NCBI RefSeq assembly: GCF_000149955.1
Contig: NC_030997.1
Span: 1,782,714 to 1,846,713, forward strand
Origin: Fusarium oxysporum f. sp. lycopersici 4287
Lineage: Eukaryota > Ascomycota > Sordariomycetes > Hypocreales > Nectriaceae
Length of the DNA stretch: 64,000 nucleotides
Direction of reading: 5' to 3'
Shown here piece by piece: positions 1 to 8,460 of the stretch. The translations under genes and the position numbers were made by a program. The stretch's first letter is position 1. Every line of letters starts with the position of its first letter. The notes under the pieces are model-generated. The model worked only from the letters and a program-made list of their open reading frames with translations, was not told the DNA's origin and did not search any database.

Positions 1-3000
1 AGAGAAATACCGGATAACCCGATGACACCTTACTGGGGCACCATAGAACTCCCAATTGACTGCCGGCAAAGGCTATTGAGCCAGCCTCCTGTGATTGATT
101 TTCCGGATGTCTGAAAGTCCTCTTCCGTGTCTCTGTCGTGATATTCCATACAGAAACGTCGCCCATAGACCGACGCGCAGCTACCCACCGATCGCCATTA
201 CGTCTTCTGTCAGAGACTGCAATAGGTCCACTATCAAAGTCACCCGAGACTCTTTGCGAGCTCTTATCGGCTAAATCCCACCCAATGATCGATTGCAGGC
301 CGCCGACTAGCAGGTAGCGATCCTTGGGTGAAAATGTGATAGTCCGGATGCTTTGATGAATAACGTCGTCTATGACCAACGAACATAGCATGTCGCTTGT
401 CATCGCGTTCCATACTTCAATACTGTGACCGAGGTCGTAAGCTATCAACTGCCCGTTATCAGAGATGTGGAATTTCTTGTGGGCATCTCGTGTTGTAGGT
501 GGCTTATCAGCTAAAAGGGTATTAGCATCCAAGATCCATAAACCGCTCTCAGTCCCGCATGCAATTTTCTGATCATCGAATGAAATCGCAATTTCTTGCC
601 GATCTGGTAGATGTGGCAGGCCAATTACCCGCCGTACACTGCGATAAGCACGGTCACATATGATAAGTCCATTTTTCCCACTTAGAAGCATCCAAGAATC
701 AGAGTGTGAGACGGCCAAACGAGAGAAAGAGTACTCAATGTGACTCCACATTTCACACTCTTGCTCAACAACATTCCAGAGATAAATGTTATCTCCACCA
801 TCGCAAAACATGAGCAAGTATGTACTGGGGATGAATTTTGTGTCATTTATGGGCCAAATATCCTTCCAGTTAGCATTCTTGTACTGCTCGCCTGTTCTTA
901 AATTGAGGACCCAAATTTGCGTACTGTGGTGCATGTGGAACGCTACCCAGGAACAGTCTGATGAGAAGGAGAAGTAGACCTGTTCAATCTCTGGAATTGA
1001 ATACAAACGAGGCAATGCCTTCTCGAGAGGGCACCGTCGACGAATTCCACCGCTAATATCATAGATTACCAACAATGACCCATAGCACACTAGCAGGCAC
1101 TGACTGTCAGGTGAGATCGTCATGCCTAGAACTACAGGGCTGTCAAGCTCTTGATGCCAAGCGATCCTGTTAAAAGTCAAGTCGTGAACTTGAAGTGTGC
1201 ATTGAGCCGATGACTGCGATGTCTTTGAACCCGGTCCGGAAGCGATAATTGCTAGCCATTTCCCATCTGACGACGGTGCAATTCTTTTATGGCTAGTATC
1301 TCTTTCTATGACGTCAGGCACAGGCTCTTGGCTGACGTGCCATCTGGTCAATGTTGAGCCCGTGGTTACAATTAGCATTTGACTTGTAGGCGCGAAGCTC
1401 ATAGTCTCAATATCGAAATCGTCATGGGGGCATTCAAAAATGTTCCGAATTGGGCTCCACACATCGTCGACTTTTGGGCCCTCGGAGAATATTTCGGAAG
1501 TGTACTGTTTGAATCGATGGCGGATAAGGCTATTCTTCGGGCTGAAGAGCAAACCAGAGGCGTAAATCTGAAGTGGGTAGCTTTCAATTATTGGGCAGAA
1601 ATAGTGTGAAAATCTGAGGGCATCCTCGATCAGGGCCTTGTAGCTTGCTTGCCCTTGCTATTGGAGTCGATTAGTAAGGCTGACTTAGCGCCATGTGGAA
1701 GAATTTGAAACATACAACTGGTAAATTCCTTACAAATACCAAAGCTTTCAATGCTGCTGGTAGGTTCTGACATAAAACAAGCGCCTCTAACCAGAACAAG
1801 AACTTTTCGTTAATAAAATCATGAACAGTGTCAATCCCGGGGATATCGCTGTTTTCCTCGCCCTGAATGGAGAGCTTATACGCCTCTTGCATGTGATCAG
1901 CCCAGAAAACACATGAATATTTCATGTTCTCCAATGGATCAGGATCGGGACAATTCCGGAGAGCTTCATTCAATGAGACTCCCGGATAGACCAAGCCAAA
2001 GATATCCTGATGGAGGCTTTGCAGCATAGCGATACACCTTTGAAAGAGGTCGTATTGATGATGCGCAAGCCCAGATTGGAAGAGTAATGTGCTTGACTCT
2101 TTGAGCAGAAAGTCTTTCGCAGACTGGTGGATGAACACGACAGAGTTCCCTTTCGTCGTCAGAAATGAACCACATTCCACTATGAGATCAGGAAGTATTT
2201 CTTCATCTATTTGCAGGTTCTCCATAGCTATTAGCTCTGCAAAGGTGAGAGGGCGGAAGACCGTTGATGCGACAGCAAGGATTCTAATGTAGAGATCGCA
2301 GCTGTCAGACTTGTGGATTTGGCCCATCATCTTCGCATAGAGCTGGTTGAGGCCCTGGGGAAATTGTGATAATTGATCGGGAATTTCCCAAGCTCGGCAT
2401 CTCTCTAGTCGTTGGCATACCAAGGCCACCCAAAGAAAGGTACCATGGGCGCGCTGAGATAGGTGATCGTGGATTTGCTGCGATGTGCTCTTCTTGAGTT
2501 TCTTTCGCTCAGCTAATTGGCGAGTTCGGTAGCTGATGTAACTGTTGACAGCTTCAGAGACAGAATCCTCGTGGAGTTCCAAAGAGAGTGCGACCTTCGA
2601 TGATGTTTGTCTAAAGAGTTCCTCAATTTCGCAGCGGTTGCGGCTAGTGACAATCCACTTGGCGCGAGAAGACATGCTTGATATCAATGCCAGGAGAAGA
2701 GGGAGGTCCTTAACGCATTCATCCAGAGCATCTATAAGCAAGTATATCTCGCCAGGAGTTGTATCGTCTACCATTTTTCGGAAAGTGCGTTCGAGGGACA
2801 CCTTAGAGTTCCAGTGGTCTTTGTCATGCTTATCGTCTAGATGAGGCACAACAGTTGGGTGCTGAATGGCTAGCAGGTAGATGAGACCTTTCAAGATTGC
2901 TGTATAGTTGTTCAGACCAGAATTTGTAGCTTGGCAGAAGAAATAGGATATTGTGTTGCTGCTCTGCGCGCCGCCTAATTTCGTCAAAGGCTGCAGCTCG

Positions 3001-3353
3001 TTGATGAGACCGGATAATAGCATTGTCTTCCCTTTGCCAGGGTCTCCTCTGATCCACAGAAGCCGGCCAGCCTCGCTTTCGTCGCGCCAAGTAATGAACT
3101 CAGGGCTTTCAAGGATCCACACATACGAATCCTTCAACAAGCCGCCATTAGTCTGTTCGATCCTGGCTTTGTCATCACGAGGGTCAGTCGAGCGCAGTGC
3201 GTCCAGGTATTTCTTCACGCTATCTTGCTCGGACCCTTTGCGATGATGGTGCGTTATGTTGTAGCTGTTGCCGACGTGTACCCTGGAAGAACCGGATGCA
3301 TTCAGAGACTGCACAGAGCTCAACTCTCCCCTGTAAAAATTCTTTCTTGGCAC
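1..3353 (-). CDS. NWD2-like NLR (NACHT + WD40-like propeller), partial at left edge
   Basis: STAND-class signal receptor, probably the activator of the HeLo protein encoded divergently at 4277. The start ATG is at 3353. Residues about 19-40 carry a HET-s-type amyloid motif (SSRVHVGNSYN), the place where NWD2 of Podospora carries its R0 motif. NACHT follows: Walker A GDPGKGKT at 103-110, Walker B IYLLIDALDEC at about 203-213, and a sensor-like WIVTSRN at about 233. The reading frame changes at 1658-1715, which is a 58-nt intron (GTATGT donor, TACTAAT branch site, CAATAG acceptor). Splicing joins the NACHT exon to an open frame that runs to the window edge (over 1098 residues in all). The second exon has the usual post-NACHT segment (SYPLQIYASGLLFSP), then WD40-like blades (for example NIYLWNVVEQ, SIEVWNAMTSD, DVSVWNITTET). 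These blades are divergent, unlike the near-identical WD repeats of canonical NWD2. The motifs and frame are seen; the partner role is inferred from the known pair. Confidence 0.9.
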
Positions 3354-4276
3354 GCACTGTTAGTGCACTGTTAGGAGCGGGATTTTCTACGGGCTACTCG
3401 GCCACACAATACTGCGGGGACGCCATCGGCTCCCTAACAGCAGTTTTCAGAGAAGGAATTTTGGAGAGTTCACCTTCTCTGACAACACCTTTGTCGGATC
3501 TAATGGCGGCACCTCAGAACCAGAACGCCTTAGATATCGGAGGACGGTGCCCGTGGCATCGGTAGCGACATCCTCCCGATCAACGACGCCGATTGCGATG
3601 GGTTTTTCCCCTTTGAAGGCAAGCCGCACCGCCGGCCTCTGATTCCTTCCCAAGGTTTTTCCCTGCCGCCACGACAGTCGACTACGAGCTACAACTTGGT
3701 TACTGGAGATTGTGGACTGCGTCAGCAGATGTAGTGATGCGTGAGAGAATTCTGGTCGGTGGAAAAAGCTCGACAGTAGATTGCCCCCGAACCCGCTGAC
3801 GGGTGACGGGCTTGAGAAATACAGCACCTTTTGTGCCATTGGTATGCTGGATGGTGAAGGAAGCGGGGTTTCCCTGTACCTAGCTAGCTCAGCACGTCTT
3901 TTGCTCCAGTAGGAGATCTGGCTTCGTTACAGCCACCCAGACGAAAAATATACAAACAAACAAACAAACAAACAAAGACTGCACAGAGCTGGATGATGGA
4001 TTCTCCATTGTGAGATCGGTAATCTAAATGTCATTGTCACTCGATGAGGGAGGCGAAAGGGAGAGTGAGAAATTAAATCACGCGAGGGTTGAAAGAGGGG
4101 GAGGTAAGGGGAAACAAGGATATATCCAATCGCAACAAAGATTTGAAGGTGTCTGCCTTTGATCTGCGTGGCTGAGGTTGCCCCGCTCAGAACCAACAAC
4201 CAACACCTTGAAGTGAAAATAACTCACCAAACTGGTCGGTTTCATCAATTGATAACCGTAGCTTGCAAAAACAATC
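3354..4276. promoter_or_regulatory. Divergent intergenic region of the NLR/HeLo pair
   Basis: About 920 bp between the two divergent start codons, so it must hold both promoters. Apart from a short CAAA microsatellite I see no clear element. A 130-codon open frame on the minus strand (3447-3839) has low-complexity, non-family-like composition and was not called. Confidence 0.5.
3953..3976. repeat. (CAAA)6 microsatellite
   Basis: Six uninterrupted CAAA units in the spacer between the NLR and HeLo genes, about 300 bp upstream of the HeLo start codon. Confidence 0.9.
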
Positions 4277-5140
4277 ATGGCTGAGATATTTGGCACCGTC
4301 GCCGGCGCCATAAGCATCGCCGGCCTATTCAACAACTGCGTCGATTGTTTCAACTACGTCCAAATCGCCAGACATTTCGGCCAAGACTTCTCCCGCTATC
4401 AACTACGGCTCGACGTCGCCAAATCCCGACTGGCAAGATGGGGAGCATCAATCGATATCAACAATAACCGACGATTTAGTCTCATCGAACCAGCAGATCA
4501 AACAGTCATATCAGCTCAAGATATTCTCCAAGAGATAGTGGCCAGGTTCGAGACAGCGAGAAAGATCTCGAGACGCTACGAGACCAGGACGAAAGAACAA
4601 GGCTTGAGGATTTACACGGAAGCAGATCTCGGTCCAGTTTCGCATCGCCTGCATAGTCGTTTTGATGGAATTACTAAACAGCGGTATAAGAGCTTGGGGT
4701 TGATGAAAAAGACATGCTGGGCTCTTTACGACAAGAGCTATATGGGAAGGATGATTGATGATATCATTGCATCTATTGAAGACTTGGAAAAGGTCTTCCC
4801 TAGCACTCCCCAGCTCACAAGTCAATTAGTACAGATGGAGATTGAAGAGATAAATGACGAGCAGGAGTTGGAATTGATTCACGACGTCACTGAAGGTGTA
4901 GATCCTGTGTTATCTGATGCCTCCAAGAATAAGAGTCTGGAAATTGCAGGCAAGAATTCTGCTGGACGAATCACTGGGCCTGGCAGGGTTAACATCGGCA
5001 ACTCATTTCTAACAGAGTCGTTTCCAAATTCACAAGGCGTTCGAGTCGATACAGTTAATCATGTTGATGAGATTAATACTGCAGAGCCGTCAAGAGTTCA
5101 TATTGGCAATACTTGGGGTGGCAAGGGGTTTTGGGATTGA
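4277..5140 (+). CDS. HET-S-like protein: HeLo domain plus amyloid-forming tail
   Basis: Uninterrupted 287-codon gene, almost the length of Podospora HET-s (289). The N-terminus (FGTVAGAISIAGLFNNCVD) is the hydrophobic segment that starts HeLo domains; the helical HeLo domain covers roughly residues 1-225. The C-terminal 60 residues hold two HET-s pseudo-repeats, R1 (GPGRVNIGNSF, from about 234) and R2 (PSRVHIGNTWGGKGFWD, 271-287). VNIGN and VHIGN lie exactly 36 residues apart, the spacing of R1 and R2 in HET-s, and the GGKGFWD end is diagnostic. In the known system the tail takes up a beta-solenoid amyloid fold templated by a matching motif on an NLR, and the HeLo domain then acts on membranes to kill the cell. 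The divergent NLR at 1-3353 carries the matching motif. Residue 23 is Asp and residue 33 His; see findings for the allele-type question. The start is the first ATG, in a good context (ATCATGG). Confidence 0.95.
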   Translation: MAEIFGTVAGAISIAGLFNNCVDCFNYVQIARHFGQDFSRYQLRLDVAKSRLARWGASIDINNNRRFSLIEPADQTVISAQDILQEIVARFETARKISRRYETRTKEQGLRIYTEADLGPVSHRLHSRFDGITKQRYKSLGLMKKTCWALYDKSYMGRMIDDIIASIEDLEKVFPSTPQLTSQLVQMEIEEINDEQELELIHDVTEGVDPVLSDASKNKSLEIAGKNSAGRITGPGRVNIGNSFLTESFPNSQGVRVDTVNHVDEINTAEPSRVHIGNTWGGKGFWD

Positions 5141-7215: not shown

Positions 7216-8460
7216 TCAGCTCAATGACTGCAGCGAACATTTCGCATCTGTGACAATCTTCTCGAGGCTCTCTTCAAGCTGCTTGTTCATATCAACAAGA
7301 GCTGCATTTCTATCCATGAGGTCCTTGTTTTGTGCAGCGAGGGCATTTTTGCTGCTCTCTAGCTCCTTGACTTTGGAGGCAATTTTATCGAGGCGCTCCT
7401 TGCAAGACTTTTTCGCAATTACTGATTGCTCAAATCTCTCTTTGAGCTTGCTGCTCTTGGCGAAAACACATTGATTGCTGGTCTTGAGAGCTGTAATTTC
7501 CTTCGCGAGGAGTTTGTTACTGCTCTCTAAAGCCCGGTTTTTTGCCATGAGAAGCTCCTTGTAACTCTTGGCAGCATTTCTTGCAAGAGCAATTTTAGTC
7601 AAGAGATCCTGGCTCGTAGCAATATGATCTCCGTTATCTGAATCTATGTCCCTGTTTTCCTCAGCAAGGGCCTCGTTCTCAGTAACAAGATCTTTGTTAC
7701 TCGACTCCAGCTCCTGACTCTTCTTAACAAGCTCTTCATTCTCAGTAATGAGACCCTTGTTACATGACTCCAAGTCCTTGTTCTTCTTAACGAGATACTC
7801 ATTCTTGCTGTTGGCTGCATTAAGTGACTTCTCAAGTTGGCGAATCTCACCGTGGAGCTTTACCTTCGCCATCACGTTAGCCTCGTGGATGCGGTTGTCG
7901 GGGTCAAAAAGTGCTTGATATAAAGATTGTGCCTTGCGCTGAAGTGCTTCTACTTCGAGCTGTAGCTTGAGATTGTGCTGCATCGCAGACTGTTTCTCTT
8001 GCTGAGATTGTCGCAGTTTCTTCTCAAGCTCTTTAGTCTTCTCAACCCAGTGCGCTTCTCTTTTCATCGGATATGACAAGAATGGAACATCCGAGTCAAC
8101 CTCGATATCAGCCTCTGCCGGAATATCTGCAACCTGATCTGGCTTTTCTTCCGTGGCATGTGTATTGCTCTGTTTCATGCCTTCGACCTGCTCTCTCCAG
8201 TCATGAAGTACAATAGCTAGGGCACCATCATCCTCAACCCACTCTCGCGGAAACTCCAGCTCGGAGAGCCGGCGGTGGGATGTGATTCTAGTGACCGGGT
8301 TGAGGTCTCGCGCGGTTCTAAGGTCATCATCTGTCAATAAAACACCTGCAAATGGAGGCCCTTGGGATAGGAAATGCGCAAGATGCTGGATTTGTCGGGC
8401 AACCTTGAGGATCTCAACGTAGGCCCCCGAGTCGGGCTTCTCAGCAGAGGCTGTAGACAT
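7216..8460 (-). CDS. Coiled-coil protein of unknown function
   Basis: Single-exon frame of 414 residues with no stop or frameshift. Residues 1-100 form a short non-coiled head (including LTDDDLRTARDLNP and LSELEFPREW). Residues about 140-410 are an almost continuous coiled coil rich in E, K, N, L and S. Within the coil, a pattern of the form NKDLES-NK-L-TENEEL-KK recurs several times between about 220 and 330, suggesting internal duplication. There is no signal peptide, membrane segment or catalytic motif, so a scaffold or structural role is a guess. The next gene on the right is a broken plus-strand gene that also encodes a long coiled coil, so the two may be paralogous or simply share composition. 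Confidence 0.7.
   Translation of the reverse strand: MSTASAEKPDSGAYVEILKVARQIQHLAHFLSQGPPFAGVLLTDDDLRTARDLNPVTRITSHRRLSELEFPREWVEDDGALAIVLHDWREQVEGMKQSNTHATEEKPDQVADIPAEADIEVDSDVPFLSYPMKREAHWVEKTKELEKKLRQSQQEKQSAMQHNLKLQLEVEALQRKAQSLYQALFDPDNRIHEANVMAKVKLHGEIRQLEKSLNAANSKNEYLVKKNKDLESCNKGLITENEELVKKSQELESSNKDLVTENEALAEENRDIDSDNGDHIATSQDLLTKIALARNAAKSYKELLMAKNRALESSNKLLAKEITALKTSNQCVFAKSSKLKERFEQSVIAKKSCKERLDKIASKVKELESSKNALAAQNKDLMDRNAALVDMNKQLEESLEKIVTDAKCSLQSLS

What the first reader, a model, noticed from the sequence alone, without database searches (positions are those of the whole stretch)
1..5140. Divergent HET-S/NWD2-type amyloid-signalling pair
The NLR N-terminus (SSRVHVGNSYN at about 22-32) and both C-terminal repeats of the neighbouring HeLo protein (PGRVNIGNSF and PSRVHIGNTWGGKGFWD) share one short motif, and the two HeLo repeats are 36 residues apart as in Podospora HET-s. 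That an NLR and a HeLo protein with matching motifs sit head-to-head is the genetic signature of a prion-like cell-death module. It is the best-supported complete biological system in the window.
Basis: partly seen in the sequence, partly recalled or inferred. Interest (0 to 1): 0.9.

Follow-up and report, generated by a model that had tools for sequence, protein, structure and literature searches.

The report
Mobile element splits prion-like death receptor
This Fusarium window holds a known kind of prion-like cell-death gene pair, but a mobile element with many identical copies in the same genome sits between the receptor's start codon and its trigger motif, so the receptor is likely switched off in this strain while the gene for the predicted killer protein is intact.

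Summary
A HeLo protein gene (4277-5140, +) with two C-terminal HET-s repeats 36 residues apart faces a NACHT-WD receptor gene (minus strand) bearing the matching motif (PF11558 E=1.9e-21; PF17108 E=1.1e-11). It is a HET-S/NWD2-type pair, reported from Fusarium in 2012.

"Complete system" is not supported. A ~655-bp SINE-like element (3321-3975), with (CAAA)n tail and 15-bp target duplication, lies between the receptor's start codon (4008) and its amyloid motif (3252-3314). Of 42 matches listed in this genome (own copy included), 27 are identical over 654 bp. From the start codon the frame closes after 39 codons; the first ATG in the motif's frame follows the P-loop. An uninterrupted database protein is identical over 1,145 residues. 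Rescue by splicing is not excluded.

The effector keeps the HET-S-type H33. Podospora's nwd2 is also transposon-inactivated, but in strains with non-toxic HET-s; I found no description of a broken receptor beside a HET-S-type effector.

The receptor is also a mosaic: its first 300 residues are 93-100% identical to an F. oxysporum receptor (P0085) whose WD sensor is only 36-48% identical. Two WD classes cross Fusarium species, as expected under balancing selection.

The parts
4277..5140 (+). HET-S-type effector gene, 287 aa, single open frame (HeLo domain residues 6-201)
   Evidence: PF14479 9.1e-53 and PF11558 1.9e-21; PDB HET-s/HET-S HeLo 2wvn/2wvo/2wvq; D23, H33
4955..5017 (+). amyloid repeat r1 (residues 227-247)
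   Evidence: PF11558; alignment; AlphaFold2 strands 227-233 and 237-240
5063..5125 (+). amyloid repeat r2 (residues 263-283), 36 residues after r1
   Evidence: PF11558; AlphaFold2 strands 261-267 and 273-276
4009..4276 (.). 268-bp stretch between the two divergent start codons, the likely shared promoter
   Evidence: sequence, start codon positions; promoter role inferred
3976..4008 (-). receptor's start codon and first 11 codons, cut off from the rest; includes one copy of the target-site duplication (3976-3990)
   Evidence: matches the N-terminus of P0073 and relatives; read-through from the ATG closes after 39 codons
3321..3975 (+). SINE-like element, (CAAA)n tail at its + strand 3' end
   Evidence: 42 matches listed in the own genome, this copy included, 27 of them 100% over 654 bp; 28 of 30 fetched copies show a direct repeat of 8 bp or more at their ends
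3306..3320 (.). other copy of the 15-bp target-site duplication
   Evidence: exact 15-mer at 3306 and 3976; 18-bp pair 94%
3252..3314 (-). receptor amyloid motif r0, without an in-frame ATG upstream
   Evidence: PF17108 1.1e-11
2532..3065 (-). NACHT domain; first in-frame ATG of the interrupted gene at 3023, directly behind the P-loop's GKGKT
   Evidence: PF05729 8e-11, PF24883 1.9e-34; ORF 1671-3023; translation
1658..1715 (-). likely native intron (58 bp; a 76-bp alternative is 1658-1733)
   Evidence: the shorter form agrees with P0073 and P0074
1..1657 (-). WD/beta-propeller sensor exon; open to window coordinate -577 on the same contig

Best explanation
This is a Fusarium HET-S/NWD2-type gene pair in which a ~655-bp SINE-like element lies between the receptor's start codon and its amyloid motif, so the receptor is likely silenced while the predicted HeLo cell-death protein, whose frame is intact, would remain ready to be templated. 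Shown: both genes and all three motifs; the insertion with its target duplication and its many identical copies elsewhere; the closed frame after 39 codons; an uninterrupted database protein identical over 1,145 residues; H33 in the effector. Inferred from the Podospora system: in uninterrupted alleles the WD sensor would bind a ligand, the NACHT domain would oligomerise, the r0 motifs would fold into a beta-solenoid rung that templates r1/r2 of the HeLo protein, and the freed HeLo domain would damage the membrane. In this strain the first step likely fails, yet the effector should still respond to a seed or an intact receptor arriving from another strain by cell fusion. Also inferred: the receptor is under long-term balancing selection, since its WD sensor belongs to one of two classes that cross species while its signalling end groups with F. 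oxysporum receptors of the other class.
For: Pair. Insertion: exact 15-mers at 3306 and 3976; 42 genome matches listed, 27 at 100% over all 654 bp, own copy included, 40 of 284 candidates scored; direct repeats in 28 of 30 fetched copies, 24 distinct upstream flanks; tail length varies among copies. Loss: read-through closes after 39 codons, first in-frame ATG at 3023 behind the P-loop, and 0 of 50 in-frame single introns (GT-AG or GC-AG) reproduces the relatives' N-terminus. Empty site: P0073, exact blocks of 529 and 616 residues; in 16 of 16 rows P0074-P0089 the start codon runs into the motif without a break. Sensor classes: holding 8 F. oxysporum-type rows together on the WD region costs 320 log-likelihood units (p-AU 1.9e-47), while holding class B together on residues 1-300 costs 140 (p-AU 1.1e-9); mosaic break near residue 319, 0 of 5000 permutations as strong.
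Against: 36 GT-AG introns inside the insertion region would keep the frame open into the motif, so a spliced, slightly altered receptor is possible; no RNA data were available. P0073's source is withheld, so the empty allele may come from another assembly of the same clone. Sensor classes, and the rows of the mosaic test, were chosen after seeing a first tree and an identity table, which makes the p-values optimistic. Two further F. oxysporum rows, P0094 and P0097, carry the motif but belong to a third, more distant lineage, so paralogues exist in the species. No own-partner excess in motif similarity in 13 pairs. Amyloid formation and toxicity are untested here, and AlphaFold2 may have learnt the HET-s solenoid from the PDB.
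Confidence: 0.75

Rival explanations
1. The pair is complete and works: the element is spliced out as part of a new intron, or is missing from most nuclei, and the receptor still carries its motif.
For: 36 GT-AG pairs keep the frame; everything downstream of the element is open (1,273 codons with one intron), and an otherwise matching uninterrupted protein is known.
Against: None of the 50 in-frame single-intron options gives the relatives' N-terminus; the 11 options the script printed are 565-676 bp long, which is long for this fungus (recalled), with donors I judge weak. Frame-keeping options arise by chance in an insert of this size. A young insertion leaves the rest of the frame open anyway.
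Confidence: 0.18
2. The two sensor classes are not alleles of one locus but old paralogues, kept or lost differently in different species.
For: The database proteins give no position for most class B members; F. oxysporum as a species has both classes, and a third, more distant motif-bearing lineage (P0094, P0097; P0097 and class B P0089 are both labelled f. sp. vasinfectum).
Against: In this genome, of 38 matches to a class B query, only the window locus (48% in its WD part) and one weak place (C10:77560-77970, 29%, E 2e-9) reach beyond query residue 556; 36 of 157 candidates were scored. F. phyllophilum class B P0092 and its HeLo P0003 are reported from a contig of the same length, as in the class A pairs. 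The shared signalling end with a break near residue 319 fits exchange between alleles.
Confidence: 0.25
3. The HeLo protein now works without this receptor, as the target of other amyloid-motif receptors or as a self-propagating prion like Podospora HET-s.
For: Its frame and tail are intact although the receptor is split.
Against: H33 is the HET-S (toxic, non-prion) state, and none of 72 relatives (70 with a residue there) has P33. No other receptor with PF17108 was found in this genome at E<=10; the receptor pieces next to the two other HET-s-type genes have open frames of only 419 codons. The insertion looks too recent for the effector's integrity to show continued use.
Confidence: 0.12

Closest known systems
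HET-S/NWD2 of Podospora anserina (HRAM1 class)
   Same: HeLo effector with r1/r2 36 residues apart; divergent adjacent NACHT-WD receptor with N-terminal r0; HeLo domain alignable to the solved ones
   Different: 41-44% identical in the HeLo domain; here the receptor is split by a SINE-like element while the effector is still HET-S-type. The HRAM1 label is by resemblance; I ran no HRAM classifier
nwd2 pseudogene of Podospora het-s strains (repa transposon scar of about 0.5 kb; PMC4344463, passages; PMC3321046, passages and sections 7 and 14)
   Same: The same kind of receptor, put out of action by a mobile element
   Different: A separate event; in Podospora it goes with the non-toxic effector, here with H33. 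PMC3321046 says the order of the two losses could not be resolved; this strain would be a case of receptor first
FgHET-s and the Fusarium HET-S/STAND pairs of Daskalov et al. 2012 (PMC3321046)
   Same: Same family and genus; F. oxysporum homologues and their adjacency to STAND genes were reported there
   Different: The passages and sections I read mention no interruption and no sensor classes in Fusarium
Foxy, SINE of F. oxysporum (PMC3599309, PMC5063351, passages)
   Same: Dispersed short retroelement of F. oxysporum, reported as active and also present on core chromosomes
   Different: I had no Foxy reference sequence; the identity is inferred from description only

Membership tests
HET-S/NWD2-type amyloid-signalling pair | effector with HeLo domain | tested here: met
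   PF14479 9.1e-53; PDB 2wvn 1.2e-63; Foldseek 2wvq E 1.4e-18
HET-S/NWD2-type amyloid-signalling pair | two C-terminal HET-s repeats, 36 residues apart | tested here: met
   PF11558 1.9e-21; cores at residues 236 and 272
HET-S/NWD2-type amyloid-signalling pair | adjacent NACHT-WD receptor with homologous N-terminal motif | tested here: met
   PF17108 1.1e-11 and NACHT; minus strand, next gene
HET-S/NWD2-type amyloid-signalling pair | receptor motif in frame with, and close behind, the start codon | tested here: not met
   element at 3321-3975 intervenes; frame closes after 39 codons. Met in 16 of 16 rows P0074-P0089
HET-S/NWD2-type amyloid-signalling pair | tail folds as a two-rung beta-solenoid | tested here: inconclusive
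   AlphaFold2 puts strands at both repeats, pLDDT 61-88 by block of ten over residues 221-287; Foldseek 2mus E 0.027, 2rnm E 0.15. Model may be learnt from the PDB
HET-S/NWD2-type amyloid-signalling pair | tail forms templatable amyloid; HeLo kills on templating | not testable with these tools
   needs expression of fusions
Podospora [Het-s] prion allele | proline at HeLo position 33 | tested here: not met
   H33; 0 of 72 relatives, 70 with a residue there, have P
SINE (Foxy-like) | under 1 kb, simple-repeat tail, target duplications, many dispersed copies | tested here: met
SINE (Foxy-like) | RNA polymerase III promoter, tRNA-related head | tested here: inconclusive
   no Rfam match up to E=5 over 3200-4100; no separate tRNA or promoter-box search was made
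SINE (Foxy-like) | sequence identity to the published Foxy | not tested
   no reference sequence held
Allorecognition (het) locus under balancing selection | allele classes older than the species, crossing species in the tree | tested here: met
   classes named after the first tree, and allelism itself not shown
Allorecognition (het) locus under balancing selection | unlike alleles cause incompatibility on fusion | not testable with these tools
   needs strain pairings

The most novel reading that the evidence does not exclude
The locus is an ancient Fusarium allorecognition switch with two sensor alleles older than the species. A SINE has just created a receptor-dead, effector-armed allele: the missing first step on the road that in Podospora ended in the [Het-s] prion, caught in the act, and a sign that transposon loss of the receptor is a recurrent fate of these pairs.
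Probability: 0.28. Interest if true: 0.78.

Novelty: new variant of a known kind. Interest (0 to 1): 0.58.

Why it matters
In Podospora the receptor nwd2 is reported dead in all het-s isolates analysed, and the order of events (receptor loss or effector mutation first) was left open (PMC3321046). A Fusarium genome with a freshly split receptor beside a HET-S-type effector would be a natural case of receptor-first, and it can be tested directly. The sensor classes point to a concrete candidate locus for vegetative incompatibility in F. oxysporum. For annotation, it warns that matching motifs in neighbouring frames do not prove a working amyloid-signalling pair.

Tried and rejected
r0-r1 identity own 0.234 versus other 0.239 (p 0.70); r0-r2 0.332 versus 0.341 (p 0.82). 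A negative result, reported as such.

The thought that the motif's missing ATG was only a short upstream exon (a normal gene model) was dropped when the 15-bp duplication and the genome-wide copies appeared.

Rfam on 3200-4100 gave nothing. Two of 30 element copies gave no direct repeat by script: L012, whose 3' flank is shared with L026, so it is probably rearranged, and L029, where by eye the flanking stretch does recur.

Single introns only were tested as a way round the element; pairs of introns were not. A second structure job, VIA-align and the third protein search were not used.

My notebook entry 2 overstates two things: not every copy showed a duplication (28 of 30), and not all of P0074-P0124 start with the motif (P0090, P0107, P0114 and P0120 do not show it at their start). 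While checking the draft I also found that I had left out two F. oxysporum rows of a third lineage (P0094, P0097) and one weak WD match elsewhere in the genome. Because of these I raised the paralogue rival from 0.20 to 0.25 and lowered the novel case from 0.30 to 0.28.

Paper searches that gave no description of this interruption or of sensor classes at this Fusarium locus. I saw the listings (20 of 24, 20 of 36 and 20 of 40 papers; all matching papers in the others), passages from PMC3321046, PMC4518210, PMC4986451, PMC4344463, PMC9262711, PMC5870968, PMC3599309, PMC5063351, PMC12345182 and PMC7914406, and two whole sections of PMC3321046. PMC5870968 reports trans-species patterns at other F. 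graminearum non-self genes. Only open-licence papers are held.
Full report
What is there. The HeLo ORF at 4277-5140 (+) encodes 287 residues. Pfam gives HeLo (9.1e-53, residues 6-201) and the HET-s prion-forming region (1.9e-21, residues 222-281). The closest solved structures by sequence are the Podospora HET-s and HET-S HeLo domains (2wvn 1.2e-63, 2wvo 4.2e-62) and the HET-s amyloid (2kj3 7.5e-6). The two repeat cores start at residues 236 and 272. An AlphaFold2 model from 58 sequences (mean pLDDT 84) places strands at 227-233, 237-240, 261-267 and 273-276; over residues 221-287 the blocks of ten average 61-88. Foldseek matches its HeLo part to 2wvq (E 1.4e-18) and its tail, weakly, to the HET-s amyloid models (2mus E 0.027, 2rnm E 0.15). 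The model may have learnt this fold from the PDB, so it is supporting evidence only. That the organism is a Fusarium, probably F. oxysporum, rests on the matches: the closest HeLo relative with a name is an F. oxysporum protein at 97%.

The neighbour on the minus strand is a NACHT-WD receptor. Its first open frame (3359-1671, stop to stop) hits PF17108 (the HET-S motif of receptors, 1.1e-11), NPHP3_N and NACHT; the next (1657 and on) hits beta-propeller models below their cut-offs. The frame continues beyond the window to coordinate -577. One intron of 58 bp (1658-1715) agrees with P0073 and P0074.

The receptor is interrupted. There is no in-frame ATG between the upstream stop and the motif. 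About 700 bp upstream, an ATG at 4008 opens the same N-terminus as in the relatives, for 11 codons. Between them lies an element of about 655 bp, flanked by an exact 15-bp duplication (3306-3320 and 3976-3990) and ending in a (CAAA)n tail. A search of the own genome (61.2 Mb, 71 contigs) scored 40 of 284 candidates and listed 42 matches, the window's own included; 27 are 100% identical over all 654 bases, and all but one of the others are 97% or more identical over at least 652 (the last is a 286-base piece at 99%). Of 30 copies fetched, 28 carry a direct repeat of at least 8 bp at their ends, with 24 distinct upstream flanks; the tail length varies. Some copies share flanks on contigs C3, C6, C1 and C15, which points to segmental duplication of those stretches. 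This is how a SINE inserts, and the identity suggests recent activity. F. oxysporum has a SINE family called Foxy that is reported as active and dispersed also on core chromosomes (PMC3599309, PMC5063351; passages). I had no Foxy sequence to compare.

Consequence. Reading from the ATG, the frame closes after 39 codons, without the motif. The first ATG in the frame of the motif is at 3023, directly behind the P-loop's GKGKT, so a protein started there would lack both motif and P-loop. I asked whether a single intron could bridge the element: 50 GT-AG or GC-AG pairs keep the frame, 36 of them GT-AG, and none gives the N-terminus of the relatives. Splicing to a slightly altered but motif-bearing receptor is therefore possible and untested. 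The uninterrupted database protein P0073 is not such a single-intron product. It equals this gene over blocks of 529 and 616 residues; its last 60 or so residues follow another splice model and can be read in this genome's DNA further downstream. Its source is withheld; its contig (2.36 Mb) differs in length from the window's (2.23 Mb). The insertion is thus very young, or even polymorphic within one clone. In 16 of 16 rows P0074-P0089 the start codon leads straight into the motif. P0090, an F. oxysporum protein, is annotated to start at the methionine behind the P-loop; its gene may be interrupted too, but I could not see its DNA.

The effector is not damaged. At position 33, which separates Podospora HET-S (toxic) from HET-s (prion) according to PMC3321046, it has H; among 72 relatives (70 with a residue there) none has P. 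Position 23 is D, as in 69 of 72.

Comparison with Podospora. In wild het-s isolates nwd2 is a pseudogene carrying a repa transposon scar of about 0.5 kb (PMC4344463, passage; PMC3321046, section 14). The authors propose that loss of either partner removes selection on the other and say that the order could not be resolved. The present strain has a probably dead receptor with a HET-S-type effector, so it would be a case of receptor first. That both genera lost this receptor to a mobile element may be a pattern or a coincidence of two.

Sensor classes. By blocks of 100 residues, the window's receptor is 100, 99 and 93% identical to the F. oxysporum protein P0085 over its first 300 residues but 36-48% beyond residue 600, whereas it is 90, 82 and 84% identical to another F. 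oxysporum protein, P0074, over the first 300 and 59-90% beyond residue 600. On 25 rows, a WD tree puts eight F. oxysporum-type rows into two classes. Class A (window, P0073, P0074) lies with F. annulatum, proliferatum, fujikuroi and others. Class B (P0085, P0086, P0089, P0090 and P0091, the last labelled only Fusarium sp.) lies with F. mundagurra, phyllophilum and pseudoanthophilum, support 100/99. Holding the eight rows together costs 320 log-likelihood units. On residues 1-300 the opposite holds: holding class B together costs 140. There, F. oxysporum without P0091 was not a perfect clade either (p-AU 0.032), because P0082 of F. gaditjirri joins P0074. Two more F. oxysporum rows, P0094 and P0097, carry the motif but lie outside both classes with F. 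redolens (57-75% identical over residues 1-300); I did not count them in the eight, and they show that the species also holds a third lineage, possibly another locus. A mosaic test of the window against P0085 and P0074 on 389 informative sites places a break near residue 319 (95% like P0085 before it, 11% after; 0 of 5000 permutations as strong). Classes and rows were chosen after a first tree and table, so the p-values are optimistic; the differences are not marginal. In this genome, of 38 matches to a class B receptor, only the window locus and one weak place on C10 (29%, E 2e-9) reach beyond query residue 556 (36 of 157 candidates scored). The pattern is that of an allorecognition gene under long-term balancing selection, but allelism and incompatibility are untested.

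Pairs elsewhere. Contig lengths and consecutive locus tags link HeLo and receptor genes in other Fusarium species, for example LB506_011458/011457, FGADI_5975/5976, FANTH_1249/1250 and FLONG3_4495/4494. In 13 linked pairs the motif of the receptor was no closer to its own partner's repeats than to others'; within this genus the motifs are too alike to show specificity.

Other HET-s-type genes in this genome. Two further HeLo genes with the HET-s tail lie on C3 and C6, in stretches 100% identical over 7.5 kb. Each is followed by a receptor piece with a motif-like start and the beginning of a NACHT domain, in an open frame of 419 codons. PF17108 finds only the window's receptor and, weakly, the window's own HeLo tail. 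So at these thresholds I found no whole receptor of this type in the genome, against three open effector genes. Divergent motif classes could have been missed.

Verdict. The pair is real and of a known kind. It is most likely disarmed in this strain by a young SINE-like insertion, with the effector still in its HET-S form, and the receptor gene shows the marks of an old recognition polymorphism.

Noticed in passing
L048/L049 (G000:C3 and C6 neighbourhoods): Second HET-s-type HeLo gene followed by a receptor piece with an open frame of 419 codons, in two identical copies (100% over 7.5 kb).
   Followed up: partly
P0090 (database protein, F. oxysporum): Class B receptor annotated to start at the methionine directly behind the P-loop, the same place where an interrupted gene's longest ATG frame would start; possibly a second, independent interruption.
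   Followed up: no
P0094, P0097 (database proteins, F. oxysporum): Motif-bearing receptors of a third, more distant lineage within F. oxysporum (45-50% identical overall); perhaps partners of another HeLo gene such as P0016 (63%).
   Followed up: no
L013/L021/L025, L014/L022/L024, L015/L023, L001/L027: SINE-like copies with identical flanks on different contigs, suggesting recent segmental duplications between C3, C6, C1 and C15.
   Followed up: no
7216-8460 (-): 414-aa open frame with a long, repetitive, coiled-coil-like sequence; not analysed.
   Followed up: no
G000, HeLo family search: 19 HeLo-domain matches in the genome, several in frames of 500-1000 residues, so other HeLo-bearing proteins exist.
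   Followed up: no
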